DNA from: Synechococcus sp. HK01-R
Lineage (GTDB): Bacteria; Cyanobacteriota; Cyanobacteriia; PCC-6307; Cyanobiaceae
NCBI RefSeq assembly: GCF_014217855.1
Contig: NZ_CP059059.1
Coordinates: forward strand, 434,001 to 498,000
Direction of reading: 5' to 3'
Length of the DNA stretch: 64,000 bases
The notes below the pieces were generated by a model that did no database searches, was not told where the DNA came from, and worked only from the letters and a program-made list of their open reading frames with translations. The position numbers were made by a program, and so were the translations under genes. Position 1 is the stretch's first letter, and each line of letters starts with the position of its first letter. Positions 17,685-36,828 of this stretch are shown piece by piece.

Positions 17685-18365
17685 TCAAGCAGCAGCGCGC
17701 ACCAGGCCGCAACGCGATACATACAACTGCAGGAAAAACGTGACTAACGGAACATAGATGATCAATCCAATAATGAAGAAACCGCAGGTGACAAACGCAA
17801 GCAAAAAGGCAAGTAGCTGCAGGCCCACGAGCGCCCAACCCTTCTCACTGCCATAGACAGAAGCAAAGGAGGACGTGAAACAATCCCAAACACTAAGATC
17901 TGTAGTGAACACCTTATTGACGTAAATTGGTGCCGAAGCCAGCACAATGATGCCTGGCAAAAAACACAGAAAAATGCCAACAGTGGAGGCAACTGTAAAC
18001 AGCACACCGGCCAAAAAGTAACGACCCAACCGAGACATCAACAGCGAATAGACATCAGCAAAACTGACCACGCCTTCACCGCGCTGATAGTAGATCGCCG
18101 GTATTGCGGTGAACAACACGCTGATTAAACTCTGTAGAAGCGAGAAAGGGATGCTGCTGAGCTGACCAAAAATGGCACCCATACCTGCGCCCACCCCGGA
18201 GCCATCATCTAACGCCGAGAACAACAGGAAAATCACCCAGTACACGATGAGGCCAGCCACAGCCACAGCGACAGAAGCAAGCCAGGTGAGCAGCAATGTG
18301 GGCACATGGGCAATGGTGTCATTCCAGGCCTCACGGAGGGTGGCGCCCGCACTAAACGTTGTCAT
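17685..18365 (-). CDS. Polytopic membrane protein, unknown function
   Basis: A 226-residue protein with about five hydrophobic segments: residues 22-52, 82-95, 115-150, 173-200 and 200-220. Recognisable pieces are LREAWNDTIAHVPTLLLTWL, FTAIPAIYYQRGEGVVSFADVY and FLCFLPGIIVLASAPIYVNK. The layout resembles the broken gene at 13647 and DUF975-like proteins, but I cannot assign a function. The stretch upstream of ATG 18365 is AT-rich and lacks a Shine-Dalgarno. It marks the left edge of the envelope island. Confidence 0.75.
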   Translation of the reverse strand: MTTFSAGATLREAWNDTIAHVPTLLLTWLASVAVAVAGLIVYWVIFLLFSALDDGSGVGAGMGAIFGQLSSIPFSLLQSLISVLFTAIPAIYYQRGEGVVSFADVYSLLMSRLGRYFLAGVLFTVASTVGIFLCFLPGIIVLASAPIYVNKVFTTDLSVWDCFTSSFASVYGSEKGWALVGLQLLAFLLAFVTCGFFIIGLIIYVPLVTFFLQLYVSRCGLVRAAA

Positions 18366-18503
18366 AAAAAAGAAAAATTTTTAGGCAGTATACAACAAAT
18401 CACTTCAATGGCAACCAGGTTGACGAGTCACCCCTAATTCGATAACGAGAGGCAGGATTGGCAAGTAAACTCTTGAAAATCCCAACCAACCAAACTCAAT
18501 GTC

Positions 18504-18785
18504 ATGCTGCAAATCATTCCGATTGCTCTACTCGCCGCTGTGTTTCTTCTCGATCTCGTGAATGCACTGGTGGGCGTGTTGTCGAATTTTGAGATCCTGC
18601 CGGAACTAGGCCAATGGACGAACATTCTCGGAACAGCGTTGAGCCTGCTCGCCACGCTGATCTCCGCAGTTCTTCTCGCCACAAAGAAATTTTCATCGCT
18701 GGCACTGGGCTTCATGGTGACGCTGCTGTGCGCACTATCCAGTGCTGTGTTCGCTACCTGGACAGCAAGCTGGTTTCTCCCCTAA
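18504..18785 (+). CDS. Small membrane protein, unknown
   Basis: 93 residues with three hydrophobic segments: IIPIALLAAVFLLDLVNAL, NILGTALSLLATLISAVLLA and LALGFMVTLLCALSSAVFAT. No recognised motif. It is divergent from the preceding membrane protein, with 138 AT-rich nt between them that probably hold both promoters. The composition fits a genuine membrane protein rather than a chance frame, but there is no independent support. Confidence 0.6.
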   Translation: MLQIIPIALLAAVFLLDLVNALVGVLSNFEILPELGQWTNILGTALSLLATLISAVLLATKKFSSLALGFMVTLLCALSSAVFATWTASWFLP

Positions 18786-19285
18786 GCCACAAAAACCATC
18801 GACCAGGCTCCAGGTACAACAACAAGGGCGTTAACGGCAGGTGGAGTTCGGTGACACCAATGCCTACGCCATTACAACCCTCCATCAGCCCCTACGCTCG
18901 AGCATTGAGGGTTAACAAGAAAGCCTTGCCACTTCGCAATCGAAACATACGCTGCGCTTCAAGCAAAACGGCCAACACAGCAACCACTCCCCCTAACGCC
19001 AACGCTGCCGTCAAGGAATGTTCTGCGAGGCGACCTCCGCAGCCCAGACATAGCGCATATCTCCTAGAGCTGGAACTACAAGACCCAGGCCCCCTGCAAA
19101 GGGCCGCACCTTCCACCAGATCAGCAACGTGAAGCCAAGACTCAGGCTGTCATCAAGCGATCAAGCCTTTTCCCACCAATAATGATTGCCATTTGACGGC
19201 ACCAGAATCGAGACCACGCAAAAGCTCAGAACAATGACCCAGTGTATTATTTTAATCAGATATATAGATCTCCACACTCATTACG
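18786..19285. other. 500-nt region without an intact gene
   Basis: No intact gene is convincing here. The middle part holds a probable frameshifted membrane-protein remnant on the minus strand (listed separately). The last about 100 nt before 19286 are AT-rich, with TATTAT at 19245-19250 as a possible -10 box for the next gene; no clear -35 box is seen. Confidence 0.6.
18892..19157 (-). pseudogene. Frameshifted remnant of a small membrane protein
   Basis: On the minus strand one frame (about 19157 down to 19011) reads SLGFTLLIWWKVRPFAGG then GDMRYVWAAEVASQN before a stop. The adjacent frame (19116 to 18892) continues with SLTAALALGGVVAVLAVLLE and AQRMFRLRSGKAFLLTLNARA. Joined by one frameshift near 19020 they make a plausible protein of about 85 residues with two membrane segments. 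No good start codon is left on the first part. This is my reading only; an unrelated short gene at 18892-19116 is an alternative. Confidence 0.35.
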
Positions 19286-20035
19286 ATGCATCTCAAACTC
19301 CTAGATCGCGGTGAGTTCAATAATCGTACAGCCGGTTTCAGCACTCAACAGGCTCTAATCATCCTCTTGGCAATCTTTCCCCTGGGAGTAATAGCCCTAG
19401 GAGTCGTCCTCCTCGTGGCAAAGAAACACGGCCAAACTCCAGTGACGAAAGCAGAAGAACCCAAGCCAGCAATCGCGTCCAGACCGGGGCCAACGGGCGA
19501 GGCCAGCACTACGAATCCAACACAAACAAAAGGCTCGACACGTGAAAGAGCCCAGCCATCAATGAGCGGTACAGTCGAGCTCGGACCCTCCGTGAGTGGC
19601 GCTCCAATCCGTTTGCTGATGGGAAGCATTCAATCGCGCGACCAACAGTTCACGGAGTTTCAATATCAACTTGGTACCAGCACAGTGCAGGCGATGGCCA
19701 ACTGCAGTAACCAAAGTTGGACCAGCTATCCCGAGCGCCAGGTGAATCGGCCCCAGTCACCGGCAACGGAGCGCATGCTCAGCCTGGTCTGTAGGAATGC
19801 GCCTCAGGTGAACCAAACAGCAACGGCCCCCACCCCAAATCCGGACGCGTTATATCCAGGGGTAGCGGTTGTGTTCGACCCACCGAGCAATGTGCGCACA
19901 AGCCCAGGCGGAGCCTTCCTCTGCACAGTGAACAATCAGCGGACGATTCCCGTCGGTCAGGCTCAAGGTGAGTGGTACCCCACTTCCGCGTGTGGATCCC
20001 AAGGCTTCATTCATCGCAGTCAAGTTCGCTTCTAA
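19286..20035 (+). CDS. Membrane-anchored SH3-like domain protein with shared N-terminal module
   Basis: 249 residues. Residues about 14-48 are the island's recurring module (TAGFSTQQALIILLAIFPLG, then a hydrophobic run ending VAKKHGQ). A Pro/Thr/Glu-rich linker follows to about residue 90. The central part contains YQLGTSTVQAMANCSNQSWTSYP and NRPQSPATERMLSLVC. The C-terminus looks like a bacterial SH3 domain (SNVRTSPGGAFLCTV, IPVGQAQGEWYPTSACGSQ, GFIHRSQVRF), a fold that often binds cell-wall peptides. I infer one membrane pass with an extracytoplasmic C-terminus. It is followed by a second gene with the same module 34 nt later. Confidence 0.75.
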   Translation: MHLKLLDRGEFNNRTAGFSTQQALIILLAIFPLGVIALGVVLLVAKKHGQTPVTKAEEPKPAIASRPGPTGEASTTNPTQTKGSTRERAQPSMSGTVELGPSVSGAPIRLLMGSIQSRDQQFTEFQYQLGTSTVQAMANCSNQSWTSYPERQVNRPQSPATERMLSLVCRNAPQVNQTATAPTPNPDALYPGVAVVFDPPSNVRTSPGGAFLCTVNNQRTIPVGQAQGEWYPTSACGSQGFIHRSQVRF

Positions 20036-20069
20036 ACACAGACCTTTTGTTTCCCTTCCCTTCTTCCCC

Positions 20070-20621
20070 ATGCTCCCTTTCCGCGACCCCCGCACGGCAG
20101 GATTCTCAAATCAACAGGCACTGCTCGCACTACTAATAGTTTTTCCAATCGGAATGATTGGCATCGGGGTCGTAGTCACCCTTGCAATACGATCCAACTC
20201 TGTCTCCACAGCCGAGGCCCCTGCGCCAGCCATACAGACACCGTCTCCGAGTGCACCTCCTGCTCAAGAGGCGACAGAAATCAACAGGCCGGCGCCGTCA
20301 ACGGACACCAAACCCTTGGCAAATCCAGGATCTGCACGCCCCACCGTCAGTGGGAACACCTGCTGGTTCCAGATGCAGCGGGAAGGCAGTTTGATCGGTA
20401 ATCGTTGCAACGTGACCCAAAGAGTCAACGTCAACGGTGATCGAGTCTTCGACGTGATTGAGCCCTCAGGCCTGAAACGATCCGTGGTGCTATGGGAGAA
20501 CAATGAGGTGGAAGTGTTCCTTGAAGGCGAGCGCTACATTGGAAACTGGCGTATGGATGATGACGGTGATGTTCGCGTCAGCCTGCCCGGAGGTACATTT
20601 GCCTTTACACCTCCTAGCTAG
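20070..20621 (+). CDS. Membrane-anchored protein with shared N-terminal module, beta-rich C-terminus
   Basis: 183 residues from ATG 20070. Residues 8-40 repeat the island module (RTAGFSNQQALLALLIVFPIG and hydrophobic continuation), followed by a Pro/Ala/Ser-rich linker and a compact C-terminal domain: NTCWFQMQREGSLIGNRCNV, VFDVIEPSGLKRSVVLWENN, VEVFLEGERYIGNWRMDDDG. Alternating polar and hydrophobic residues suggest beta strands; two cysteines could pair. I do not recognise the domain. It is in tandem with the SH3-like gene and probably co-transcribed. Confidence 0.72.
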   Translation: MLPFRDPRTAGFSNQQALLALLIVFPIGMIGIGVVVTLAIRSNSVSTAEAPAPAIQTPSPSAPPAQEATEINRPAPSTDTKPLANPGSARPTVSGNTCWFQMQREGSLIGNRCNVTQRVNVNGDRVFDVIEPSGLKRSVVLWENNEVEVFLEGERYIGNWRMDDDGDVRVSLPGGTFAFTPPS

Positions 20622-20664: not shown

Positions 20665-21216
20665 TCAAAAATCGTCGTCGCCTTGCCGCCTGATCAGCAC
20701 AAACAATCCAACCAAAAGAGAAGCAACAACTAAAAAACCAGCCGCCCCTAGCAAAGGTGCCGCAGGAGATGGACTCGAAAACGGTTGAGGAGATTGTGGG
20801 CCAAGCGGTGGGGGATGGCTAGCTGATGGCAATGGTTGATGAGAAGGCTTGGCAGACTGATGCTTGACGTAGCGAACAAAACCCAGCAGACCAACCAACT
20901 CTGATTGATCTGGCGAAACATCGAGGGTTAAACCTGTACCAGTTGACTGATTCACAAGCTTGATCCTGTTCTGTTCAAGAAACTGCCATTGCGCATCAGT
21001 AAGGACACCAAACATCGTGACAGCAGCCTTTCCATCAGGCTCGAGATAAAGACAGGAGAACTGCTCTGCAGACGAACTATCATCCATCCCATCCAAGCAA
21101 TACTTACCACTGAGCCGTGAAGAAGGAGAAGCCAAGCAGGCCTGAAGAGCAGCACAAGAAGCAATAACTACAACAAGTCGGCAACTCCACAATCGATCCA
21201 TAAAACATTTATCCAT
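20665..21216 (-). CDS. Lipoprotein-type exported protein with C-terminal membrane tail
   Basis: 183 residues from ATG 21216 (or 168 from ATG 21201). The N-terminus is a lipoprotein signal ending in the lipobox LQAC. The middle is SGKYCLDGMDDSSSAEQFSC and LTDAQWQFLEQNRIKLVNQ, then a Pro/Ser-rich linker, and the C-terminus is a hydrophobic segment LLGAAGFLVVASLLVGLFVL closed by RRQGDDDF. It would therefore be tethered at both ends. It is the last gene of a four-gene minus-strand operon, overlapping the preceding stop by 8 nt. Function unknown. Confidence 0.65.
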   Translation of the reverse strand: MDKCFMDRLWSCRLVVVIASCAALQACLASPSSRLSGKYCLDGMDDSSSAEQFSCLYLEPDGKAAVTMFGVLTDAQWQFLEQNRIKLVNQSTGTGLTLDVSPDQSELVGLLGFVRYVKHQSAKPSHQPLPSASHPPPLGPQSPQPFSSPSPAAPLLGAAGFLVVASLLVGLFVLIRRQGDDDF

Positions 21217-21778
21217 CGTATCGATACACCCCTTCTCCAACACGAAACGCAGCACCTGTTGATTTCTGAAGCTGCCTTCGAAAACGTTCTGCTTCCTCCA
21301 CCGAATCAAAACTTGCCACTTGCAAAGATCCTTCGGCAGTGATATAGGCATCACCGCAGTATCGATCTCGAATGATTCGCAACAAATTCCTGTCCGGTGG
21401 ACCCAGCACTGGCCACCAACGCTTTGCCGCACCTGGCGGGGAACCGCAGCTGGAGGCATAACGCAATGTAGGCAAAGACTGCACCGATGATTGCTCTCCA
21501 TTGCGCCAAACCACCAGCAACACGAGTGGGCTCAACAACATGGCGATGATCAAAAGAACGATAGCGGGTTGCGCAGAATCATTGCCGGTGGCGGTTGATG
21601 AGAAGGATCGATCACTTTCATCTAAACCAACATAATCAGCTGGTTTAGAGATCGCAGCAGAGTGTGAAAGTGAAGAGATCACACTTGAATCAGCCTCCTC
21701 ATCAAGAGACTGAAGAAAACGCTCTGCTTCCTCGGCGGTTGAACGAAGCTGATCGACACCGTCTTGCTTTGAAGTCAC
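21209..21778 (-). CDS. Single-pass membrane protein with SPOR-like C-terminus
   Basis: 189 residues. The acidic N-terminal part (DQLRSTAEEAERFLQSLDEE) is likely cytoplasmic. One membrane segment lies at about residues 71-91 (AIVLLIIAMLLSPLVLLVVW), and the C-terminal part reads RYASSCGSPPGAAKRWWPVL, then SLQVASFDSVEEAERFRRQL. The last piece looks like a SPOR domain (one strand, then a helix that begins EEAERF); SPOR domains bind denuded peptidoglycan at division sites. The match is from pattern only. Its start overlaps the amidase stop by 4 nt. Confidence 0.65.
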   Translation of the reverse strand: MTSKQDGVDQLRSTAEEAERFLQSLDEEADSSVISSLSHSAAISKPADYVGLDESDRSFSSTATGNDSAQPAIVLLIIAMLLSPLVLLVVWRNGEQSSVQSLPTLRYASSCGSPPGAAKRWWPVLGPPDRNLLRIIRDRYCGDAYITAEGSLQVASFDSVEEAERFRRQLQKSTGAAFRVGEGVYRYDG

Positions 21779-22656
21779 AAGCCGGCCTGCCCGTTATCGA
21801 ACCGTTCAAAACCGCAGAGACGAGCCGATGCTTGGTATTCGGGGTCGAAGCGATCCCAACGGAAGCTACGCGGGTCGTAGCGGCTATGGCTGCGATCAAT
21901 CGCTTCGTGGGTCGTCAGACGCGTTAGAGGAATTCCGAATTTGGCCTGCCATAGCAACACCTGGGCTGCCAGAGTTCGATATTGAGCCTGGGTGTAGCCG
22001 GAGTGCCCACTGCGGTCGTCCCGACCATCCTCTGGCGACACAAGGCTGATATGCAGGGCAATATTGTTCACTGATCCCACGCTGGACGGCTTAGTGCGCT
22101 GGGTGACATCACCAAAAGCCGACATCCCCGCCCCATAGGCGCGCTTTTCATCCGGAACGATGCGCACGCGTGTGCCATCACGGGCAATCAGCATGTGATA
22201 ACTGGCCTGATCCGCATCATTGGGATGAGGAGTTTGAAAGAATGCAACCGTCGCTTTCTCGCTGATCACCGTTTCATGCAAAACGATGATGAGTGGTTCA
22301 GCCTGCAGAGGTCGCTTCCAGGTATCGACAACTTTTCGGTCGCCAAAATTGGTGGTATCGGCGGTTTGATCCTCCTCCTCAGTTAGCCCAAGCGTTTTGA
22401 CACAGCTGGCAATCTCCTGCTTCGTTGCAGGCGGCACACCCGCATCCGCCAACTCCATCAAAGGAGGAAGTGACAGACCTTGTTTCGATATTTTGCTCTT
22501 TGGCTGGGGTCCACCCTCGTCATTGGAATCGGCATGACCATTGATCGAGGGATGCTGATCAGAGACGGATTGCCAAGGGAAGCGGAGCGGCAAGGCCGAA
22601 CAACCGCTGAGAAGGATGAGGGCTGCAACAACAGAAGTAACGCGAAAATTAGACAT
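21775..22656 (-). CDS. Lipoprotein N-acetylmuramoyl-L-alanine amidase (Amidase_2 type)
   Basis: 293 residues. The signal peptide ends in the lipobox LLSGC (Cys about residue 19), so the enzyme is lipid-anchored outside the cytoplasm. After a linker of about 90 residues comes an Amidase_2/PGRP-like domain: PLIIVLHETV with a zinc His, DADQASYHMLIARDGT, NNIALHISLV, YTQAQYRTLAAQVLLWQAKF and TTHEAIDRSHSRYDPRSFRW with the likely remaining zinc ligands. Such enzymes cut the bond between MurNAc and the stem peptide. It sits between the IMS-domain gene (no gap) and the SPOR-like gene (4-nt overlap). Confidence 0.85.
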   Translation of the reverse strand: MSNFRVTSVVAALILLSGCSALPLRFPWQSVSDQHPSINGHADSNDEGGPQPKSKISKQGLSLPPLMELADAGVPPATKQEIASCVKTLGLTEEEDQTADTTNFGDRKVVDTWKRPLQAEPLIIVLHETVISEKATVAFFQTPHPNDADQASYHMLIARDGTRVRIVPDEKRAYGAGMSAFGDVTQRTKPSSVGSVNNIALHISLVSPEDGRDDRSGHSGYTQAQYRTLAAQVLLWQAKFGIPLTRLTTHEAIDRSHSRYDPRSFRWDRFDPEYQASARLCGFERFDNGQAGL

Positions 22657-23310
22657 TTACTGTTTGCGATAATCCCAAATTTTCCATCGACCAGACTCTT
22701 CTTTGAGGGTATAAAGCCAGTCTTTAGTACTTGAGGACGTTTCGCTGCCCTTGGGTGAATGCAGAACAGATACTTCGGTCACAGAAACAACGATCGAAGG
22801 CATGGAAGGCGAGGGCATATAGCGCATCACACGATTCACCTTGATCGCAGAATAACTATAATAGCTATTATTATTTTTTAGCCACTGAATCGAACCATCT
22901 GGCTTAGTGAGATCTGTCCACAACGGTCCTGCTGCAACCACCTGATCGGCCAAATCTGTATTAAATGGTGGTGCAAAGATCTGAGATTTCACCGTGAGCC
23001 ATTGTTCAACGATGGCTCTCGCTTGCTCTTGTGTGAGTCCAGACGGCTGAGCCGCAGGCTGTTTTTGCGTGGGCAGCGGCTGAATCGTGGTGGATCGATC
23101 TGAGGAGTCCGGACGCTCGACGGCCTGGGGAGCGGGAGCCTGCGCAGTTGTCACCGTGCCCTGACGCTGCAGGAGCAACACGACAAGCCCCAGCCCCACC
23201 AAGCCAATTGGGAAAATCAGCAAAAGAACCAACAGGGCTTGCTGATTACTGAAACCTTGCGCGCCGCGCCGCCCTAAACGGAGGCCCTTGATTGACGTTG
23301 AGCGACTCAC
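22657..23310 (-). CDS. Membrane-anchored ARC6-type IMS-domain protein with shared N-terminal module
   Basis: 217 residues from GTG 23310, which has a strong ribosome site (GAGGTGA) 5 nt upstream. Residues 20-55 hold the island module (GFSNQQALLVLLLIFPIG and hydrophobic continuation). After a Pro/Gln linker, the C-terminal 115 residues look like the IMS domain of ARC6/Ftn2 (DUF4101): LTQEQARAIVEQWLTVKSQI, PLWTDLTKPDGSIQWL, SYYSYSAIKVNRV and DWLYTLKEESGRWKIWDY. In ARC6/ZipN this domain faces away from the FtsZ side and contacts division partners. First gene of the four-gene minus operon. Confidence 0.75.
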   Translation of the reverse strand: MSRSTSIKGLRLGRRGAQGFSNQQALLVLLLIFPIGLVGLGLVVLLLQRQGTVTTAQAPAPQAVERPDSSDRSTTIQPLPTQKQPAAQPSGLTQEQARAIVEQWLTVKSQIFAPPFNTDLADQVVAAGPLWTDLTKPDGSIQWLKNNNSYYSYSAIKVNRVMRYMPSPSMPSIVVSVTEVSVLHSPKGSETSSSTKDWLYTLKEESGRWKIWDYRKQ

Positions 23311-23432
23311 GGAATCACCTCGGAGGAAGATGGGGTCGATGCAACAGCACCGAGCTTGCAGGCCCTGACCCAGAAAAAGCCATAAGGCCAACGGTCACAA
23401 TGGGCTAACGACCAGGATGGGAACCAGGGCGA

Positions 23433-24335: not shown

Positions 24336-24840
24336 ACCCAACCGAGGCCTCACCAAGCAGCATGCGCTGCTGGCACTGATTCTTGCCTTTCCGCTGGGCC
24401 TGATGAGCGCAGGCTTTGTCGTGTTGGCGCTGATCAATCGCCCGGAGACCGCAACAGAGCCAACAACGCCCAACACCGAGACGCAACCCGGGCGAGAACA
24501 GGCAGAAAGGCCCACATGGGACAGAGAGCCTTTGCCCAAAGACAAGATCTCTCCACCGGTGCCGAACCCAGCATCAACACGGTCTGAGGACAGACAACTC
24601 GACGATCTTGCGGATGCGATTTTCTGGCGTAGACATCCTTCCTTGTACGGAGTAAAGCTCAGCAATCAAAGCGGGGCTTTAGCCCGTGAATGGCAGCAGA
24701 TCCGCCGATGCGAAGCAATAGTCGACTATCGCTTCTATCAAGTCGTTCCTCAGATGCACGGCCGCGCCATCAACAAAGACCAAACAGAGCTTGTGGTGCT
24801 CTGGCAAAACCTCAGAACTCAGGTGCCTGGCTGCTCCTGA
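24328..24840 (+). CDS. Membrane-anchored protein with shared module and a two-fold FY/W repeat
   Basis: 170 residues. The N-terminus is a variant of the island module (NRGLTKQHALLALILAFPLG with hydrophobic continuation to about residue 35). After a charged/Pro linker, two related units of about 36 residues follow: DAIFWRRHPSLYGVKLSNQS with LAREWQQIRRCEAI, and DYRFYQVVPQMHGRAINKDQ with LVVLWQNLRTQVPGC. I know similar tandem units only as uncharacterised cyanobacterial sequence. ATG 24328 lies inside the end of the metallopeptidase gene, indicating coupling. Its 3' end overlaps the convergent DUF1460 gene by 22 nt. Confidence 0.72.
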   Translation: MTEPNRGLTKQHALLALILAFPLGLMSAGFVVLALINRPETATEPTTPNTETQPGREQAERPTWDREPLPKDKISPPVPNPASTRSEDRQLDDLADAIFWRRHPSLYGVKLSNQSGALAREWQQIRRCEAIVDYRFYQVVPQMHGRAINKDQTELVVLWQNLRTQVPGCS

Positions 24841-29241: not shown

Positions 29242-32200
29242 ATGACCTCTTCCCAGACCCAGGACATCGTCCAAATCCCCTGGTTTCCAAAAACAGACCC
29301 ACCACTGGCCGGAGGCGCACAGTCGGGAGAGTGGCAGGGTCGTGATCAGCAAAGCCTGGGCACCATCGCCAAAAGCCTTGTGTATGAGGTATCCACCTCC
29401 AGGGTGAATTCGCTGCCTTCCCCCTGGTCGCGGGCTCTGCAGTTCGAGCAAGCTGTGCTCAACACGCGTTACCCCACCCGCGATTCTCTGCTGGAGGAAT
29501 TGTTCGGCGGCATGGCCTGTCTGGGCCTCTGGGAAATGTTCGGCTTACGCCTCGATGCTCAGCGGGTCGCCCTGCTGGAGCATGCCGACCTGGAAGACGA
29601 TGCCGTGGGCCCATTCTCTCGCAGTCTCGCCAGCTCGCTTCCTGACGGAACGACCTCTCTGTCACGTCACCCCGACGGTCGCAATCCCTGGGAAGTCGTC
29701 TATGTGTTCACCCTCCAGAGCACCGTGGTGGGCTTCAGCTCACCCAGCACTCTGTTCTGCCCTGCGGTGCATCTCCCCCAAGCGATCCAGGGGATGGGCT
29801 GGACTGCGGGTGGACGCTTCAGCAACCCCGTTGAATTCCTCGGCGGTCCCCAGCGTCAGGCCCTGGCCGATTGGTTCAGCCATGTGAAGAACGGGATGCT
29901 GAAAGCACCAGATCTGCAGAGCCAGACCACGGCGGGGCAACTGGCTGAAGTGCTTGAGCTATTCATCACCAAACTCACTGCGGGGCGGCTGGGCACCCCG
30001 ACCCTGTCGGACAGCGGGCGCGTTGCCAACCTGCCGTCGAACCCGGTGGCCCTGTCCTTGCTGGCACGCCCCGCCAAGGGTGGCGTCAGTGCCAGCCAGG
30101 CCACTATCGAACTGGGCGATCGCCTCAAGGCGCCGCTTGGGGACACACCGACCGGCGAGCCGGTGGTACTGGTGGATCCCGAGATGCCCAACAAGCTGGG
30201 GGTCAGTGCCGCTGACATCTGCCTGTACAAATCAGCCACGCTTGAGTCCATCGGGTTTGATCCCGGTCAGCTCGAGCGGCAATACGGCCAGGAGATCACT
30301 GTTCTCACGCCTGACCAGATTTTCCTCGACGAGCTGTATCTGGTGTCAGGCGAACAAGCACTGATGCATTCATGGCTGCCAAGCCGCCTCGAAGGCGTGC
30401 CCATGGTTAATGGCGAAGCGGTCACGCCCCTTCTGCCTTTGCGTCCGGAAATCCGCCGTCTGTTCAGCAGCCGCGAACTGCAGGAGCGTTGCGAACTGCG
30501 GGTGATGCAGACCAGTGTGAGCAGTGAACTGGAAATTCGCCTCACCCTGCCGCTTCAAGGCCAGCGGGATGGGTACGCCATCTCCCGCTCCTATCCCTTG
30601 AAGGAGCAGAACCTGGTGGCGGAAGACCTCCCGGTGATCACGCTATGGCCCTTTGTCAGCGATGAGCGCTGGAGGCTTTATTACCTTTTCTGCGAAGACA
30701 GCCCATCAGCACTCACCGTTGATGGATTCGCCGACTACGACCGAAAACTGGGGCGGGATGGCCAGCAGGTCGTGAAGTATTTCACCACCAACCATTTCCC
30801 GGATCTGGTCCGTCTCAGTGAGCGCGGGCAAGACCGTGGTCTATTGCCGGTGACCCCACCTGCCAGCAGCCCGGATCAGGGAACCCAATGGCAAGTGGGC
30901 ATCGACTTCGGCACCTCGTTCACCAACTTCTTCATTGATGAAGGTGCAGGCCCGCAACGGCGCCACCTCGACACCAGGGTGATCTCTCTGACCCTTTCCC
31001 AGAAAGAAGAACGCCAGCGCCTGCTGAATCAGTACTTCGTTCCAGAGGAGATGTTGCCCAACGCCGATAACGGCGGCAATCCACCAACCGCAACCGCCAT
31101 CAGCCTGCGCGGCTGGCAGGAAGTGCTCGGCCAGGTGCCGGAGCTCTTCCATGAGGCTCGCTTGAGGGTTCCCAGCCCAGGCGAATTCGGTGGCGCCGAA
31201 CTGCGCACAGGATTCAAATGGGAGCAGATGCAATATCAAAAACCCTTCCTGAAGGAGGTCGCACTGCTGATCAGTGCCAATGCAGCCGCCAATGGCGCCA
31301 AGGAATTGCAGTGGTCTGTCTCCTATCCCAGTGCGTTCTCTCCAAACGAGGTGGCTCGGTACCGCCGGGTGTGGGTGGAACTCTGCGCTGACCTAAACAA
31401 ACTCACAGGCTTGCGCCATGCCCTCAACGGCAAGGCTGGTGAGGGTGGCCTGCAAACAGAAGCTGTGGCCTTCGCCAGCTACTTCGGAAACTTCCAGAAC
31501 CGGCAGATGGTGCACACCTCCTGCCTCGACGTGGGCGGCGGCACCACCGACATTTCGATCTGGCAGGACAACCGCCTCATTCACCAGGTGTCGATCCCCT
31601 TTGCCGGTCGCGACATCAGCTCTCAGCTGTTGCGCAGGAAGCCAGCATTCTTGAAATCCCTCTTCCCTCCAAGCCTCACTGCCGACATCAGTGATGACGA
31701 AGCAAGGGCCCGGCAAGACCGCAACTTCACCAGTCGTCTCGACAACATCATGCGCTACGGGTCCGATGAGCTGCTAGCCGGTCGGCTCGACATGCTCGTG
31801 AATCAGGAATCGACGCTGCAGGAACCGCTGCAGCAATTCCTCAGCCTGCTCGCCGTCAGCTTTGGAGGGATTTACCACTACCTCGGCCAGATTCAGCAGG
31901 TGCTGCGCGAGGAAGGAAAACTCACACGCTCCACCCCAACCCCGGTGTACATCGGAGGCAATGGCGGGCGGCTGATCAATTGGATTGATGCCAGCTCCAG
32001 CTTCCAGAAGGGAGGTGATCCCGACCGTCTGATGGAGATGCTGCAGATCAAGGCATCCGGCAGTGAAGCCGGCAATGCATCAACCACGCTCTCCGATGCC
32101 TACAAAGACGAAACCTCCTGCGGCTTGATCAGCTCAGGCGTGAATCTGATCGGTGATTTCGATCCCCGTAGCGATGTGATGGTGTGTGGCTCAACCCTGG

Positions 32201-32538
32201 TGGTCAACGATCTAACCTTCGAGGCCGGTGACCGGGTGGAGTTACCTCACACCATGTCGCAGATTGAGCGCTATGAGTTGCCCAATCTCGACGCAATCCG
32301 AGCCTTTGTTGATCACTACGACGACAGCATTGCAGAGCTGCGCATCCGCAGCTTGCTTCCGATTCGTCAGTTGTGTGACCTGGACACTCTCTGGGCCGAA
32401 GTGGAAACGGAAGTGCGCTCCCTCTGCCTGGCCAAAGTGGGCCAAGAAGCCAGTGACCTCGAACCCGAACCGGGCTTCATTCTTGGCCTGAGAGCACTCA
32501 CCAACATCTTGGGCCGTCTTTGGGCCGATCGTTTCTGA
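29242..32538 (+). CDS. Large Hsp70/actin-fold ATPase with unknown N-terminal half (SrfB-like layout)
   Basis: 1098 residues. About 545 N-terminal residues are unknown (soluble, no clear motif). From residue 550 an actin/Hsp70-type ATPase domain begins: phosphate-1 WQVGIDFGTSFTNFFIDE (about 551-568), phosphate-2 LDVGGGTTDISIWQ (D about 763) and adenosine motif YIGGNGGRLINW (about 903). The catalytic signature is complete, so ATP binding is likely. The size and layout recall the SrfB group of Hsp70-like proteins. It follows the tubulin-like gene by 42 nt and is probably its functional partner. Confidence 0.85.
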   Translation: MTSSQTQDIVQIPWFPKTDPPLAGGAQSGEWQGRDQQSLGTIAKSLVYEVSTSRVNSLPSPWSRALQFEQAVLNTRYPTRDSLLEELFGGMACLGLWEMFGLRLDAQRVALLEHADLEDDAVGPFSRSLASSLPDGTTSLSRHPDGRNPWEVVYVFTLQSTVVGFSSPSTLFCPAVHLPQAIQGMGWTAGGRFSNPVEFLGGPQRQALADWFSHVKNGMLKAPDLQSQTTAGQLAEVLELFITKLTAGRLGTPTLSDSGRVANLPSNPVALSLLARPAKGGVSASQATIELGDRLKAPLGDTPTGEPVVLVDPEMPNKLGVSAADICLYKSATLESIGFDPGQLERQYGQEITVLTPDQIFLDELYLVSGEQALMHSWLPSRLEGVPMVNGEAVTPLLPLRPEIRRLFSSRELQERCELRVMQTSVSSELEIRLTLPLQGQRDGYAISRSYPLKEQNLVAEDLPVITLWPFVSDERWRLYYLFCEDSPSALTVDGFADYDRKLGRDGQQVVKYFTTNHFPDLVRLSERGQDRGLLPVTPPASSPDQGTQWQVGIDFGTSFTNFFIDEGAGPQRRHLDTRVISLTLSQKEERQRLLNQYFVPEEMLPNADNGGNPPTATAISLRGWQEVLGQVPELFHEARLRVPSPGEFGGAELRTGFKWEQMQYQKPFLKEVALLISANAAANGAKELQWSVSYPSAFSPNEVARYRRVWVELCADLNKLTGLRHALNGKAGEGGLQTEAVAFASYFGNFQNRQMVHTSCLDVGGGTTDISIWQDNRLIHQVSIPFAGRDISSQLLRRKPAFLKSLFPPSLTADISDDEARARQDRNFTSRLDNIMRYGSDELLAGRLDMLVNQESTLQEPLQQFLSLLAVSFGGIYHYLGQIQQVLREEGKLTRSTPTPVYIGGNGGRLINWIDASSSFQKGGDPDRLMEMLQIKASGSEAGNASTTLSDAYKDETSCGLISSGVNLIGDFDPRSDVMVCGSTLVVNDLTFEAGDRVELPHTMSQIERYELPNLDAIRAFVDHYDDSIAELRIRSLLPIRQLCDLDTLWAEVETEVRSLCLAKVGQEASDLEPEPGFILGLRALTNILGRLWADRF

Positions 32539-32549
32539 GGGACAACGCC

Positions 32550-33557
32550 ATGAACACTGCACGCAAACTCAGCCTGGTTGGCTTGGCATTAACAGCAACC
32601 CTTTGTGGGCTCGGCGATCGGAGCCAAGCGCAGACATCGCCGCCCCCTCGCCCTGAAGACCAGGGACGGGGCCTACCGGGCGAAGGCCTTGAGCCCCCAG
32701 CAGAACAATCCGACTCAAGCTCAGCGCCATCAGCCGATCAAGCTCCTGACTTGGAGCCGGGGATGTTGAACCCAGTTGAGCAGCGCCTAGAGCAACTGGA
32801 ACAACTAAAAACCAGCAAAGCTGACGCCGCAGTCGAGATCGGCCCAATAACCGCGCCCTTCGCATTGCTCACGGGCGGCAGCCTACTGGTGGCTCTGCTC
32901 GGCCTGGCCGCCGGCATCACAGCGCACCTGCAACTGCGCCGCAGCCATCAATCGCTGAGACGGCAGACCGACAATCTGCGCACGCGACTGAACACGCTCG
33001 AAATGCAGGTGGAGCAAGACCGTGTCGTCAATCGCACGCGGCCAACCCCGTCGGCGACAACCCAGCTGTTTGTGAGCCAACCTCCTACGGCCACCCCGAT
33101 GCCGAAACCCATGGCAGTTACTCCAGCTGCAACGACACCAGCTCCCCTCCCTGGAGCACCTCCTGCTCAGAGCCCTGCTCCCTCTCCAATCAGCAAAGCT
33201 GGCCTGATCGCTGCCCTAAACAATGGCGATCGACAGCAGCTGCGTGATGCAGCCCAGGCTGAGCTCAACATTACCAGTGAGTCGGAGAATGCGATCGCGA
33301 CCGGGCGGGCCACAGCAACTGAACTGGAGGAAGTGCCTGGGGGGGGCAGCTACTGGCTGATTTCTGTGAATCAACAGCATTGGTTATTCCCCACCGACCG
33401 CACACTGAAAGGGTTTGCAGCCGCTCAACCTTCCAAAGGGCTATTCACCTACGAGCAGCAAACAATCTCAAAAGCCCAGTTGATTGAACCAGCCTTGCTG
33501 GACTACACGGGAGCAACTTGGAGCGTGAAAACTCTCGGGCGCATCGGCACACCGTGA
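32550..33557 (+). CDS. Exported membrane protein with coiled coil and island-specific C-terminal domain
   Basis: 335 residues from ATG 32550. A signal peptide (LSLVGLALTATLCGLG, cleavage near QAQ), a Pro/Ser-rich stretch, a membrane segment (APFALLTGGSLLVALLGLAA), then a coiled coil (LRRQTDNLRTRLNTLEMQVE) and a long Pro/Ala/Thr linker. The C-terminal about 110 residues are a domain also found in the protein at 34097: ATELEEVPGGGSYWLISVNQ, QHWLFPTDRTLKGF, KGLFTYEQQTISKAQLIEPA and GATWSVKTLGRIG. Function unknown. It follows the ATPase by 11 nt and overlaps the next gene by 4 nt. Confidence 0.75.
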   Translation: MNTARKLSLVGLALTATLCGLGDRSQAQTSPPPRPEDQGRGLPGEGLEPPAEQSDSSSAPSADQAPDLEPGMLNPVEQRLEQLEQLKTSKADAAVEIGPITAPFALLTGGSLLVALLGLAAGITAHLQLRRSHQSLRRQTDNLRTRLNTLEMQVEQDRVVNRTRPTPSATTQLFVSQPPTATPMPKPMAVTPAATTPAPLPGAPPAQSPAPSPISKAGLIAALNNGDRQQLRDAAQAELNITSESENAIATGRATATELEEVPGGGSYWLISVNQQHWLFPTDRTLKGFAAAQPSKGLFTYEQQTISKAQLIEPALLDYTGATWSVKTLGRIGTP

Positions 33558-34084
33558 GCTGTCTGTCGCGCACGGCATCTGATCAGCCCTCTGGGTTCAG
33601 CAATCAGCAGGCACTCCTGGTGCTTCTCCTTGTGTTTCCAGCGGGTCTGGTTCTGCTGGGCGTCGGTTTCACGGTGCTGATGAGACCCCAAGCACAGCAA
33701 GCGGAACAACCCAAACCCTTGACGACAGCCGAGCGCATCGAGCCAAGAGTAAACCCAGTGGACTTAGCCATCAGCACCGTGAACCAATGGGTGCAAGCCC
33801 TATCTGACGGCAACACAACCAAAGCCCACTCACTCATGACCGACGGAGCTGCAACGCTCTATGACCCTGACTTTTTCACTCAATTTGAACGGGTCACAGT
33901 CTCGGATTTACAGGTCTCTAGCGTCAGCGGCTCCTATATCAATCTCAACGGCGTGATGACATTTATCTATCCCGATGGATCAACGCAGCGAGAAACACGA
34001 ACTTTCACAGTGAATGTGTTGTCACAATCTCAACCTGTTGTGACAGCGACCGAGTTTGTCTCAGTCATCAAGCCCCGATACTGA
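33554..34084 (+). CDS. Membrane-anchored NTF2-like protein with shared N-terminal module
   Basis: 176 residues from GTG 33554, overlapping the upstream stop as GTGA. Residues 15-50 are the island module (GFSNQQALLVLLLVFPAG and continuation to VLMRPQ). After a short linker, the C-terminus looks like an NTF2-like/DUF4878 alpha-beta cone: DLAISTVNQWVQALSDGNTT, KAHSLMTDGAATLYDPDFF and a strand series ending TATEFVSVIKPRY. The domain assignment is by pattern. Last gene of the six-gene plus-strand operon. Confidence 0.7.
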   Translation: MSCLSRTASDQPSGFSNQQALLVLLLVFPAGLVLLGVGFTVLMRPQAQQAEQPKPLTTAERIEPRVNPVDLAISTVNQWVQALSDGNTTKAHSLMTDGAATLYDPDFFTQFERVTVSDLQVSSVSGSYINLNGVMTFIYPDGSTQRETRTFTVNVLSQSQPVVTATEFVSVIKPRY

Positions 34085-34096
34085 TTTCAGACCAAC

Positions 34097-34795
34097 TCAA
34101 CCCAACAACCTGGACTCCAGTGCCTGCAATCGTCTTTCAAGGCTGGTCTGCAGCGGATCGGCGTGCAGACCAATCATGCCTTTCTCCCTGAGATACCAGC
34201 GACGACCATGCTCAACACCATGAGCAAAACCCGGCTTGATGAGCTCCATCTCTGCAGGTGGAGAAGCTTCAGCACTTCGATCAAACAAACGCCCCAAACT
34301 TTCAATCTGCGTTTGCCGCTGAAGCATTCCTGGTCGGGGCAACAAAACCCATTCACCATCCTGGGTTTCGATCATCCATGTGGTGCCCTGCGCAAACACC
34401 TCCAGCTCAATTTCCTCAATCGCCCCACTCAAGGTGCGACCACTGACACTACAGGGCCTGGCAAACGGCTGAAGGAGGGCCGGGGTATTGCGATAAACAT
34501 CAACAAGTCCATCGAGCGGAAGATTCAGCGTCGGAATCGCATTCTCTTTGGTATCTAATCGCACCGGAAGCTCAGGCTCACGACGCGGCCCATCAGAACC
34601 CATTAATTCTTGATCACGCCAATTCTGCAAATCCTGATCAATTTTCTCCAATCGATCGGAAAGCTCAGAAACGTCTTGGCGGACGCTCTCAAAGCTACGA
34701 GAAATATTATCGTTCGTCTCAACAAAATGATCACTCAGCTGCCGAACACTTTTCAGCAGAAATTTCACAGAGTCAACAAGTTTCTGGTCATCCAT
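34097..34795 (-). CDS. Coiled-coil protein sharing the island-specific C-terminal domain
   Basis: 232 residues, no signal peptide or membrane segment. The N-terminal about 70 residues form a coiled coil (VKFLLKSVRQLSDHFVETND, SFESVRQDVSELSDRLEKID). After a linker comes a domain matching the C-terminus of the protein at 32550: IELEVFAQGTTWMIETQDGE, WVLLPRPGMLQRQ, LGRLFDRS, AEMELIKPGF and GRRWYLREKGMIG. A short second coiled coil (LQTSLERRLQALESRLLG) closes it. Cytoplasmic location is likely. It is 3 nt after the TM2 gene and converges on the NTF2-like gene with a 12-nt gap. Confidence 0.72.
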   Translation of the reverse strand: MDDQKLVDSVKFLLKSVRQLSDHFVETNDNISRSFESVRQDVSELSDRLEKIDQDLQNWRDQELMGSDGPRREPELPVRLDTKENAIPTLNLPLDGLVDVYRNTPALLQPFARPCSVSGRTLSGAIEEIELEVFAQGTTWMIETQDGEWVLLPRPGMLQRQTQIESLGRLFDRSAEASPPAEMELIKPGFAHGVEHGRRWYLREKGMIGLHADPLQTSLERRLQALESRLLG

Positions 34796-34798
34796 TGA

Positions 34799-35170
34799 TC
34801 ACTCTCCAGATTGCTGCTGAGTACGCTTGACCGATTCTTGTGCAGCACGCAGGAGCTGGTCAAGCTCTCCGTCATCGGCCTGAGAATTCCCAGCAGGAAG
34901 CGAAAATGGAGCTGCATGATGGGTTGAAACGGCAGCAGCATCATGGGCAGGATCAGCAGTCTTTAGCCCCCTATTCGCCTGCTTAACGGAATCCGGCAGG
35001 AGGAAAAGATCTAACAACTGACCAATTCCGCACAAACCAAGCGTGAAGAGCAACACCATGCCATAGCCAACCTGGCCAAGGTACATGCGCTGAACGCCAC
35101 AAACCCCGACAAACGAGAGGCACCAGAGAAGGTAGCTCAGGGATAGCTCTTTTTTCTCCCGAATGGGCAC
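34799..35170 (-). CDS. TM2 domain protein
   Basis: 123 residues. The TM2 fold is visible: two membrane segments around the loop GVQRMYLGQVGYGMVLLFTLG and GIGQLLDLFLLPDSVKQANR. A Pro/His-containing tail and acidic helix (DDGELDQLLRAAQESVKRTQ) follow. TM2 proteins are of unknown or sensor/scaffold type. It is the first gene of a two-gene minus operon with the coiled-coil protein. A second TM2 protein is encoded at 37875. Confidence 0.8.
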   Translation of the reverse strand: MPIREKKELSLSYLLWCLSFVGVCGVQRMYLGQVGYGMVLLFTLGLCGIGQLLDLFLLPDSVKQANRGLKTADPAHDAAAVSTHHAAPFSLPAGNSQADDGELDQLLRAAQESVKRTQQQSGE

Positions 35171-35244
35171 CGATTAATCATTTCAGCTGCACAGTTATTC
35201 TATCGTAAATCCAGCGAAGCCCCAGACCAGGCTCACACCAACCC

Positions 35245-36435
35245 ATGCCGGAGAGCTGGCCAGTCCTCATCAACACCCTGTTACTTGCGTGGCTGGTGCG
35301 AACCGTGATCGTCCTTCAGCTAGCTTTTCGAGATAAAAGATGCGAACTCACGCAGACTCAACACGAACTAGCAATTTCAAAAGCATCAGATAATCAGAAA
35401 TCAATAAGCATCGTCATCCCCGCATTCAACGAGAAGAGATTAATTGAAGCGACTCTACTATCATGCATTCAGTCAGATTATGCCAACAAGGAAATCATTG
35501 TCGTTGACGACGGATCCACAGACGGCACGGGAGTCATCGCGAGAAAACTCGCTGATAAGCACCCAAGCCAACGGATTAAAGTATTAAGAAGCCGCCGCAA
35601 CCAAGGAAAAACTGAGGCCCTCAACCTTGGCCTTAGCCAAGCCAAAGGAGACCTCATCGTTACCCTTGATGCCGACACACAGCTGGAAACAGAACAAACC
35701 CTCTCAGTATTAGTCCGGCCAATCCTTACAAACCCAGAGATTGCAGCAACCACAGCCAACTTCAAAATTGCCAATCCAGCATCAACACTCAGTAGATATC
35801 AGGCGATCGAATATGCCAAAATGATCCAAATAACTAAACGGGCACAAAGTCAAACCAACACAATACTGATACTTCCCGGAGCGCTAAGTGCCTTCAGCAA
35901 AGTTGAGCTCAAGGCAATAGGAGGATTCTCAAAGGCCACATTGGCCGAAGATGCCGATGCCACCATGGCATTGCTTCGTCAGGGTTATCACATCTGCCTA
36001 AATACAAGTGCCTGCGGATTCACAGAAGTACCAACATCCATCGCTACCTTTATCAAACAGCGAATTCGCTGGCGCGTTGGCCAATGGCAATGCCTCTGGA
36101 AACATCGAGGCCTTGCAAGGCAATCATTGGCAGCTTGTTTTTTTTATTTTGACGTCGTCGCAACCAACTGCCTGACAGCGGCAACGCCCATTTTCATTCT
36201 TCTTGCTCTTTGGCGATTAATTGAGCAAGGCGATTGGCAATCCTCAGCCTGGGCCTCCTGCGGCTTCATCGCGACAGATATTTTCGTGACAACAACCACT
36301 ACACAACTCGACAAAAGCTTTAGAACAACATCTGCAAGTTATTGCGGCAGCCTGGTCTTCTTTGCGGCCCTCAACCCTGTGATCACATGGCTCTCGATCA
36401 TCAAGCTATCAAGCAAAATTCCGATCACCTGGTAA
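35245..36435 (+). CDS. Processive GT2 glycosyltransferase (PgaC/cellulose-synthase-like)
   Basis: 396 residues. One N-terminal and three or more C-terminal membrane segments surround a GT2 domain with all the landmarks of processive enzymes: ISIVIPAFNEKRL, IIVVDDGSTDGTG, VTLDADTQLE, LAEDADATMALLRQGY and KQRIRWRVGQWQCLW (Q-x-x-RW). It should add sugar units to an exopolysaccharide or envelope glycan; the donor sugar cannot be read. The gene looks more AT-rich than its core neighbours, which could mean transfer. No dedicated exporter gene is adjacent. Confidence 0.85.
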   Translation: MPESWPVLINTLLLAWLVRTVIVLQLAFRDKRCELTQTQHELAISKASDNQKSISIVIPAFNEKRLIEATLLSCIQSDYANKEIIVVDDGSTDGTGVIARKLADKHPSQRIKVLRSRRNQGKTEALNLGLSQAKGDLIVTLDADTQLETEQTLSVLVRPILTNPEIAATTANFKIANPASTLSRYQAIEYAKMIQITKRAQSQTNTILILPGALSAFSKVELKAIGGFSKATLAEDADATMALLRQGYHICLNTSACGFTEVPTSIATFIKQRIRWRVGQWQCLWKHRGLARQSLAACFFYFDVVATNCLTAATPIFILLALWRLIEQGDWQSSAWASCGFIATDIFVTTTTTQLDKSFRTTSASYCGSLVFFAALNPVITWLSIIKLSSKIPITW

Positions 36436-36456
36436 GGTAATTGCCCAAAAATAATA

Positions 36457-36828
36457 TCACTGCGAAGAATCATCGATCCAGCGGCAAGCCGTATCAGAGT
36501 CTGACGAATATTGAACTGATCCATCTTGGTTCTTACGACCTGCAAGGTTGATGCAGCCTTGCTTACCACGCACATCTTCGATAACCGCCATGAAATCGCA
36601 GTAATAATTACCTCTGTAGCTCCCACAGTCATGCGGATTAGAGAAGGTCACCTTGGTTCCATCGTCCCACTCACCTTCGTTCAACTCTTTTGCCAAACTG
36701 AAACCAAATTTCTTATAGTCAGCGAGGTCATTGTAATTAGTGGGCAAAGAAAACTTTCTGGAATCAATCACTGAACAACCAGAAACAACAAGACCCATCA
36801 GAGGGGCCAAAGCAATCAATCGATACAT
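36457..36828 (-). CDS. Small lipoprotein, unknown
   Basis: 123 residues from ATG 36828 (an ATG 18 nt earlier also fits). The lipobox is VVSGC. The mature part is soluble, with FGFSLAKELNEGEWDDGTKV, four cysteines that could pair (HDCGSYRGNYYC, GKQGC, DTAC) and an acidic C-terminus. No family recognised. It converges on the glycosyltransferase with a 21-nt gap and closes the accessory island. Confidence 0.65.
   Translation of the reverse strand: MYRLIALAPLMGLVVSGCSVIDSRKFSLPTNYNDLADYKKFGFSLAKELNEGEWDDGTKVTFSNPHDCGSYRGNYYCDFMAVIEDVRGKQGCINLAGRKNQDGSVQYSSDSDTACRWIDDSSQ

What the first reader, a model, noticed from the sequence alone, without database searches (positions are those of the whole stretch)
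17685..36828. An accessory island of envelope proteins that may form one unnamed cell-surface or cell-wall machine
About 19 kb between core genes (ndhH/DUF2752 and the men block) holds some 20 genes, nearly all exported, lipid-anchored or membrane proteins. They include three probable peptidoglycan enzymes or binders (lipoprotein amidase, DUF1460, SPOR-like), a YpfJ-type metallopeptidase, an IMS-domain protein, a tubulin-like GTPase, a giant Hsp70-like ATPase, a VWA lipoprotein and a processive glycosyltransferase. They sit in tight operons and share domains with one another, so a common job is likely. The function (wall remodelling, surface structure, motility or defence) is inference.
Basis: partly seen in the sequence, partly recalled or inferred. 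Interest (0 to 1): 0.85.

Follow-up and report, generated by a model that had tools for sequence, protein, structure and literature searches.

The report
Mobile cytoskeleton-and-envelope machine of cyanobacteria
A 17.6 kb block of foreign-looking DNA in a picocyanobacterium carries an unnamed machine, built around a tubulin-like and an actin-like protein, that scattered bacteria share as one unit and that in many relatives comes with an ion-driven motor like that of the Zorya anti-phage system.

Summary
The island is real (about 19,286-36,846; 55.7% GC against 63-64% outside). Its core, VWA lipoprotein - 4-TM protein - short tubulin-like GTPase - 1,098-aa ATPase - coiled-coil protein, is a conserved unit: in 79 named loci the 4-TM gene lies directly before the tubulin gene in 72 and the ATPase directly after it in 68, in cyanobacteria and in bins of five other phyla. 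The ATPase looks more like MreB than Hsp70. In 10 of 17 picocyanobacterial carriers and 9 of 12 loci from other phyla a MotA/MotB-type gene or pair like ZorA/ZorB of Zorya stands beside the core. The window's genome and G019, its nearest block carrier, lack that pair; their blocks hold peptidoglycan enzymes and five proteins with one membrane-anchor tag not found elsewhere in these genomes. The block lies elsewhere in other chromosomes and the core on plasmids. The tubulin is not published FtsZl1, which 9 of 29 carriers also have, often in its own FtsZl1-ZorA-ZorB-like operon. I read it as a sister design to the predicted FtsZl1 'membrane remodelling' system and favour a peptidoglycan-linked stress or remodelling machine; phage defence remains open.

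The parts
19286..20035 (+). membrane-anchored protein with shared anchor tag (tmp1); C-terminus looks SH3b-like by eye only
   Evidence: TM; tag; no Pfam hit
19968..20621 (+). membrane-anchored protein with shared anchor tag (tmp2); true start probably later in this ORF
20665..21501 (-). lipoprotein-like ORF with C-terminal TM (true start probably internal, as the ORF overlaps the next gene)
   Evidence: no Pfam hit
21209..21778 (-). single-TM protein with SPOR-like C-terminus
   Evidence: SPOR E=5e-4, 20.7 bits against cut-off 21
21775..22656 (-). Amidase_2 lipoprotein (N-acetylmuramoyl-L-alanine amidase)
   Evidence: E=1.6e-17; lipobox
22657..23391 (-). anchor-tagged ARC6-like IMS domain protein
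   Evidence: E=2.2e-18; tag
23433..24335 (+). YpfJ-like zinc metallopeptidase with C-terminal TM
   Evidence: E=9.8e-14; TM
24328..24840 (+). anchor-tagged protein (tmp4)
24819..25808 (-).
   Evidence: E=2.5e-39
25823..27148 (+). CORE: VWA-type lipoprotein, lipobox LTAC, MIDAS-like DGSSS
   Evidence: synteny
27168..27698 (+). CORE: 4-TM membrane protein (MEM)
   Evidence: directly before TUB in 72 of 79 named loci
27700..29199 (+). CORE: short tubulin-like GTPase (TUB), loops GVGGTGAK and FGGTGASG
   Evidence: Tubulin_2 30.6 bits; invariant glycines
29242..32538 (+). CORE: 1,098-aa protein; residues about 548-966 actin/MreB-type ATPase fold, N-terminal half not identified
   Evidence: model pLDDT 86.1; Z 19.6 to MreB; motifs
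32520..33557 (+). CORE: one-TM coiled-coil-type protein (CC family)
33518..34084 (+). anchor-tagged protein (tmp5)
34097..34795 (-). CC-family protein without TM
34799..35170 (-). TM2-domain protein
   Evidence: E=1.5e-11; a TM2 protein is also near the core in Picosynechococcus
35245..36435 (+). GT2 glycosyltransferase (in the block of G019 too, 44% identical)
   Evidence: E=8e-35
36457..36846 (-). small lipoprotein, no relative found in the loci compared
17128..18785 (.). NOT part of the island: resident ndhH-menE site genes (DUF2752, 226-aa membrane ORF, 93-aa ORF)

Best explanation
The island is a horizontally moving cassette for one trans-envelope machine. Shown: a five-gene core (VWA-type lipoprotein, 4-TM protein, short tubulin-like GTPase, large actin-fold ATPase, one-TM CC protein) kept in order in cyanobacteria and other phyla; in many relatives a ZorA/ZorB-like MotA/MotB-type pair stands beside it. 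Inferred: the tubulin-like and actin-like proteins form a nucleotide-driven scaffold on the cytoplasmic face, held to the membrane by the 4-TM and CC proteins and read out or anchored on the other side by the VWA lipoprotein, whose MIDAS could switch ligand binding. Where the motor is present, ion flow through it and binding of its OmpA domain to peptidoglycan would couple wall state or force to the scaffold through the long MotA tail. The window's version has no motor and instead carries peptidoglycan hydrolases, a SPOR-like protein and five proteins sharing one anchor tag, so it probably senses or trims the wall by these. Its job is peptidoglycan-linked stress response or remodelling, possibly against phage.
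For: Order: MEM next upstream of TUB in 72 of 79 named loci, ATPase next downstream in 68 of 79, CC after the ATPase in 59 of those 68, VWA beyond MEM in 55 of those 72 (27 same strand, 28 divergent). Distribution: 17 of 300 Cyanobiaceae and 33 of 388 class genomes, plus bins labelled KSB1, Nitrospirae, Acidobacteria, Poribacteria, Aminicenantes. Motor pair: PADLOC ZorA E=4e-13 over the channel domain of L011 and ZorB to 2e-15; PDB profile matches include ZorA 8qyh/8qyd and the MotB-type partners in 8vvn and 8qyd; TM Asp and OmpA-domain Asp and Arg invariant in 14 of 14 rows. Strong OMPA hits in 13 of 300 Cyanobiaceae, 12 of them among the 17 TUB carriers, in G190 and G177 on other contigs than TUB. 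Mobility: block elsewhere in G019 and G006; five cyanobacterial plasmids, one with a MOBP relaxase; fourfold-site difference G000-G019 0.15-0.35 for tmp4, VWA, MEM, TUB, ATPase, CC and tmp5 against 0.59-0.77 in IMS, amidase, SPOR, tmp1, tmp2 and GT and 0.42 in ndhH. Accessory link: all 5 tag hits of G000 and all 5 of G019 lie in the block.
Against: The window genome has no motor pair, and most cyanobacterial loci outside the picocyanobacteria show none within about 10 kb. Pfam MotA_ExbB is over its cut-off in only 1 of the 6 MotA-type proteins scanned (23.1 against 22.9 bits) and OmpA in 4 of 6 OMPA proteins. VWA fold unconfirmed by any profile. Accessory genes are confined to close relatives, and the tag is absent from three of the six TUB carriers among the 60 relatives (G032, G048, G056). 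Flanks in other phyla gave ordinary metabolic families and no functional hint. Loci are related to one another, so the counts are not independent. No experiment.
Confidence: 0.66

Rival explanations
1. It is an anti-phage defence system of Zorya type: the envelope part detects wall disturbance at infection and the cytoplasmic NTPase scaffold blocks the phage.
For: Motor pair of relatives matches ZorA/ZorB; patchy, mobile distribution; VWA and CC diverge faster than TUB and ATPase (G000-G006: 42 and 38% against 83 and 78%); a full-length SNase subfamily has a copy beside a ZorAB-like pair in all four genomes that match it at over 230 bits (G032, G006, G010, G001).
Against: No known effector in the 10 of 19 window proteins scanned against PADLOC; the window has no motor and no SNase hit in the block; two of those four genomes (G001, G010) have the pair but no TUB, so that link is to the motor, not to this core; flanks in other phyla show no defence theme in the 25 of 106 families listed.
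Confidence: 0.33
2. It is a wall or membrane remodelling machine (division, vesicles, surface structure), as proposed for FtsZl1 operons.
For: Peptidoglycan enzymes and SPOR/IMS/TM2 proteins co-travel in the window and G019; TM2, IMS and serine hydrolase genes are annotated next to the core in Picosynechococcus; sister operon of FtsZl1 with a like motor.
Against: Present in only 6-9% of the genomes searched, so not needed for growth in general; accessory enzymes missing in most carriers.
Confidence: 0.4
3. A motility or gliding apparatus.
For: General likeness to motors coupled to cytoskeletal NTPases and surface lipoproteins (recalled, no call).
Against: No adhesin or track protein recognised; window lacks the motor; a link to SwmA/SwmB was not tested by sequence.
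Confidence: 0.08
4. A random mosaic of unrelated envelope genes in a hot spot.
For: The ndhH-menE site is variable (gap 0.5-10 kb in 30 other genomes, my subtraction of coordinates); G008 and G012 hold three and two of the outer genes without a TUB match.
Against: Block synteny in G019 at another site; core order across phyla.
Confidence: 0.05

Closest known systems
FtsZl1 / vWA / OmpA predicted membrane-remodelling system (Makarova and Koonin 2010, PMC2875224)
   Same: Tubulin-superfamily GTPase beside a vWA-type protein, TM proteins and, in relatives, an OmpA-type protein; patchy.
   Different: TUB is about 500 aa and scores 19-35 bits to Tubulin_2; canonical FtsZl1 scores 200-365 bits in open frames of mostly 0.93-1.17 kaa (761 in G569) and lies elsewhere in 9 of the 29 TUB-carrier genomes scanned. 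The actin-fold ATPase and 4-TM protein are extra; no P-loop GTPase or kinase hit in the window. 'Hsp70' and 'MotA' do not occur in the paper's main text; its supplements were not open to me.
Zorya ZorA/ZorB motor (PMC11890865)
   Same: In relatives: MotA/ExbB-like channel with long coiled tail and MotB-like partner with OmpA domain; TM Asp and OmpA-domain Asp/Arg kept.
   Different: Beside VWA, tubulin-like and actin-like genes; no ZorC/D/E match in the window proteins scanned; absent from the window genome.
DO-GTPase/GAP1 conflict systems with tubulin, HSP70 and vWA (Kaur et al. 2020, PMC7159879)
   Same: Combine tubulin, HSP70 and vWA genes in mobile neighbourhoods, many near the membrane.
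   Different: Defined by DO-GTPase and GAP1; no hit of such a name in the window. The paper calls these systems nearly completely absent in cyanobacteria; for the GAP1-N2 type it gives tubulin and HSP70 as separate themes.
MreB / MamK / FtsA bacterial actins
   Same: Fold of residues about 548-966 and the phosphate and adenosine motifs.
   Different: Embedded in a 1,098-aa protein with a large N-terminal part not identified.

Membership tests
FtsZl1 / vWA / OmpA system | FtsZ-like domain plus extended coiled coil plus helical C-terminus (about 1,000 aa) | tested here: not met
   499 aa; canonical FtsZl1 found separately in 9 of 29 carrier genomes
FtsZl1 / vWA / OmpA system | vWA protein in the operon | tested here: inconclusive
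   MIDAS-like residues conserved but no profile or fold confirms a VWA domain
FtsZl1 / vWA / OmpA system | OmpA-family partner (frequent, not universal) | tested here: not met
   none in G000; present in many relatives
FtsZl1 / vWA / OmpA system | P-loop GTPase or protein kinase partner (frequent) | tested here: not met
   no such Pfam hit among the 20 ORFs scanned
Tubulin_2 (PF13809) | score over curated cut-off 27 bits | tested here: met
   30.6 bits (27.2 in the genome search); G019 and G006 fall below
Tubulin/FtsZ superfamily | tubulin fold | not tested
Zorya | ZorA and ZorB | tested here: not met
   no OMPA match in G000 and none of the window proteins scanned matches; homologues in relatives
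Zorya | effectors ZorC/ZorD or ZorE | tested here: inconclusive
   no match in the 10 of 19 window proteins scanned; the other nine and the neighbours in relatives were not scanned for them
DO-GTPase/GAP1 systems | DO-GTPase and GAP1 | tested here: inconclusive
   no Pfam hit of such a name in the window; I did not check that Pfam holds these models; in other phyla only 25 of 106 families were shown
actin/MreB-like ATPase | actin-type nucleotide-binding fold with phosphate-1, phosphate-2 and adenosine motifs | tested here: met
   MreB Z 19.6, rmsd 3.6 over 282 residues; GIDFGTS, D-x-GGGT-x-D and GGNG invariant in the 4-row alignment

The most novel reading that the evidence does not exclude
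A new class of bacterial machine in which an ion-driven ZorAB-type motor is mechanically coupled to paired tubulin-like and actin-like NTPases and a VWA lipoprotein, serving as an envelope-integrity immune or repair system, with two sister designs (FtsZl1 type and this type); the window shows a motor-less derivative that has taken on peptidoglycan hydrolases and a private membrane tag.
Probability: 0.3. Interest if true: 0.92.

Novelty: new variant of a known kind. Interest (0 to 1): 0.7.

Why it matters
It would join three things studied apart: bacterial tubulin relatives of unknown role, bacterial actins, and Zorya-type peptidoglycan-binding motors. The core is carried on plasmids of cultured Picosynechococcus strains, so its function is directly testable, and the FtsZl1 operons with their own ZorAB-like pair give the 2010 'membrane remodelling' prediction a concrete mechanical partner.

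Tried and rejected
Random mosaic: rejected for the core by synteny. Phage origin: no match in 50,697 phage records; four weak hits (21-26% identity) in viral contigs, not followed. Defence-island context: ORFs of 150 aa or more around the core in 12 loci of other phyla (62 of 69 given) and in 11 picocyanobacterial and related loci (63 of 77 given) were scanned with Pfam only; the 25 families shown of 106 and of 93 are mixed, many of them metabolic, with Uma2 in 2 and 3 members and SNase in 3 of the latter; no control set, so neither enrichment nor its absence is claimed. Swimming genes SwmA/SwmB: literature listing and passages only. TUB profile against PDB sequences: no match; VWA profile: nothing meaningful. 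In the fold list for the ATPase model the rows span about residues 547-972; the N-terminal half was not folded alone, so nothing is claimed about its fold. Actin against Hsp70: MreB rows run from Z 17.3 to 19.6 and DnaK rows to 17.6, so the structure alone only leans to actin; the sequence profile's 11 PDB matches are actin, MreB and FtsA chains and one biotin ligase, no Hsp70.

Caveats on counts: my ORF caller kept the longest non-overlapping frames, so some true genes were lost (L034/L075 lost TUB that way). The MOTA profile drifted on iteration and picked up OMPA proteins; in L141, L144 and L148 this moved the OMPA label, so OMPA is in 16 of 80 named loci by best label and 19 by its own profile. 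The strong-OMPA count uses a cut (at least 230 bits, or the split hit of G222) chosen after seeing the list; without it 18 of 300 match, 12 of them TUB carriers. Seven of the 14 profile rows come from those carriers and genomes are related, so the Fisher value of 9e-17 is not an honest probability. In the class set the link is weaker: 11 of 33 TUB carriers and 38 of 355 others, partly because the profile also finds the pair of FtsZl1 operons. The Zn-peptidase was left out of the fourfold-site comparison because its G019 copy is cut by the border of two fetched stretches.
Full report
WHAT IS THERE. Between the resident genes ndhH - DUF2752 - 226-aa ORF - 93-aa ORF and a thioesterase-menE pair, the window holds a block at 19286-36846 with 55.7% GC; the flanks have 63.4 and 64.1%. 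I kept 19 ORFs; 16 have a hydrophobic segment or a lipobox. The ndhH-menE gap is 0.5-10 kb in the 30 other genomes where I found both genes on one contig (my subtraction of coordinates) and 21 kb here: a variable site.

CORE. With the tubulin-like protein as query, 6 of 60 relatives (own genome included) match. G019 carries 17 of the 19 genes in reverse orientation at another chromosomal place, in the window's order: GT, TM2, dbl, tmp5, CC, ATPase, TUB, MEM, VWA, AmiA-like, tmp4, Zn-peptidase, IMS, amidase, SPOR, tmp2, tmp1; the ORF at 20665 (beyond its overlap with SPOR) and the last lipoprotein were not found there. G006 and the contig of G032 carry smaller versions. A profile finds TUB in 17 of 300 Cyanobiaceae and 33 of 388 genomes of the class. 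A scan of the genome-contig collection found 282 relatives, of which the best 80 loci were kept. In the 79 of these with a called TUB ORF, MEM is the next gene upstream in 72, the ATPase the next downstream in 68, CC follows the ATPase in 59 of those 68, and VWA precedes MEM in 55 of those 72, same-strand in 27 and divergent in 28; some misses are contig ends. Carriers outside cyanobacteria are labelled KSB1, Nitrospirae, Acidobacteria, Poribacteria, Aminicenantes and one Chloroflexaceae; they are metagenome bins. A 'Euryarchaeota' bin (L072) is probably misbinned picocyanobacterial DNA (84% identity).

COMPONENTS. VWA-type protein: lipobox Cys36 in at least 90% of rows, D74 and D170 invariant, S78 in at least 90% of 32 rows. 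TUB: invariant glycines in both GTP loops over 54 rows, Tubulin_2 at 30.6 bits. The ATPase model (45 rows, mean pLDDT 86.1, pTM 0.76) shows an actin-type fold at residues 548-966: MreB Z up to 19.6, MamK 18.6, FtsA 18.4, DnaK 17.6. Its N-terminal half is unexplained. CC: one TM in the window's copy; the family has one to five copies per locus.

MOTOR IN RELATIVES. In Cyanobiaceae 10 of the 17 TUB carriers hold a MotA/ExbB-like and a MotB/OmpA-like gene beside the core: mostly after CC, in G115, G142, G197 and G222 before VWA, in G006 on the other strand. Of 12 loci from other phyla (the 4 kb Chloroflexaceae contig left out), 9 have the MotA-type gene after the core and 8 also the OmpA-type gene; the other three contigs end soon after the core. 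The proteins match PADLOC ZorA and ZorB and solved ZorA/ZorB-type structures, although Pfam MotA_ExbB reaches its cut-off in only 1 of 6 scanned and OmpA in 4 of 6. The TM aspartate and the OmpA-domain Asp and Arg are invariant in 14 of 14 rows; in Zorya the TM aspartate, the tail and the peptidoglycan contacts are needed for defence (PMC11890865, start of abstract and passages). By profile, 12 of 13 strong OMPA carriers in 300 Cyanobiaceae are TUB carriers, in G190 and G177 on another contig; caveats stand under Tried and rejected. The window's genome and G019, each one contig, have none. In a tree of 54 TUB rows the window nests among rows with linked or, in L071/G177, unlinked motor (bootstrap not settled), so loss of the motor is likely.

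ACCESSORY SET. Five island proteins share a stretch G-F-S-N-Q-Q-A-L-L...F-P-x-G at the start of their TM segment. A profile built from them and two G019 copies finds, in 60 relatives, 5 copies in G000, all in the island; 5 in G019, all in its block; 1 in G006, in its block; 2 in G008 and 1 in G012, beside an amidase gene and without TUB; none in the other 55, which include the TUB carriers G032, G048 and G056. Between G000 and G019 fourfold sites differ by 0.15-0.35 for tmp4, VWA, MEM, TUB, ATPase, CC and tmp5, 0.39 for AmiA-like, 0.46 for dbl, 0.42 for ndhH, 0.57-0.81 for three resident-site genes and 0.59-0.77 for IMS, amidase, SPOR, tmp2, tmp1 and GT: the middle seems to have been exchanged more recently than the rim. 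The core is also on five cyanobacterial plasmids; one has a MOBP relaxase. Next to the core of Picosynechococcus sp. PCC 73109 are annotated TM2, serine hydrolase and IMS genes, kinds of domain that the window also has (TM2, IMS).

RELATION TO KNOWN SYSTEMS. Makarova and Koonin 2010 (PMC2875224; abstract and Findings read) predicted a membrane-remodelling system of FtsZl1, vWA, GTPase and OmpA proteins. Canonical FtsZl1 (200-365 bits) occurs together with our TUB in 9 of 29 carrier genomes, in its own neighbourhood. In 5 of 8 such neighbourhoods fetched it is followed by a ZorA-like and a ZorB-like gene, and in 4 of these preceded by a vWA-like gene (that vWA label is mine, from a D-L-T-x-S pattern; Pfam gives no hit in the three scanned). 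So two sister designs share the motor. Kaur et al. 2020 (PMC7159879, passages only) describe DO-GTPase systems with tubulin, HSP70 and vWA themes, nearly absent in cyanobacteria. Searches for this combination in print brought up no paper that, in what I saw of the listings and passages, describes it; the library lacks most subscription papers.

MECHANISM. Shown: conserved unit, NTPase motifs, lipoprotein and TM signals, ZorAB-like partners in relatives, mobility. Inferred: scaffold, coupling, wall sensing or trimming. Between wall stress or remodelling and phage defence the evidence does not decide.

Noticed in passing
L158, L159, L160, L161, L165 (genomes G618, G569, G420, G427, G630): The canonical FtsZl1 operon in these five of eight fetched neighbourhoods carries its own ZorA-like and ZorB-like genes after FtsZl1, with a vWA-like gene before it in four.
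   Followed up: partly
L009:1584-2514 and L010:1617-2547 (G006): Direct repeats of 931 bp, 98.7% identical, about 20 kb apart, flank the block in G006; each holds most of an SNase gene.
   Followed up: partly
L011:13601, L009:1545, L156:8575, L157:7593: An SNase subfamily with a GGGLDxxGCHT stretch near a signal-like start is matched at over 230 bits only in G032, G006, G010 and G001, each time with a copy beside a ZorAB-like pair.
   Followed up: partly
L156:9274-13234 and L157:8441-12397 (G001, G010): Another ZorAB-like operon without TUB, with a protein of about 451 aa (in G001 matching PADLOC candidate C3a124, E=2e-38) and one of about 166 aa.
   Followed up: partly
window 23433-24335 and 20665-21501: The Zn-peptidase and the lipoprotein-like ORF seem to share a C-terminal TM tail (PLLG...DD type); weak matches link the latter to Zn-peptidases of other loci.
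   Followed up: no
L014 (G019): G019 has two menE-like genes near ndhH, one 86% and one 56% identical to the window's.
   Followed up: no
L015:256-7645 (G001): At the same ndhH-menE site G001 carries a different cluster of unknown ORFs (721, 347, 326, 147, 412, 364 and 132 aa), so the site takes up varied cargo.
   Followed up: no
L072: A bin labelled Euryarchaeota holds a picocyanobacterial-looking TUB locus, 84% identical to the window: probably misbinned.
   Followed up: no
NC_022111.1:623715-624668: A Prevotella replicon in the plasmid collection holds a weak TUB relative (24%, E=5e-8).
   Followed up: no
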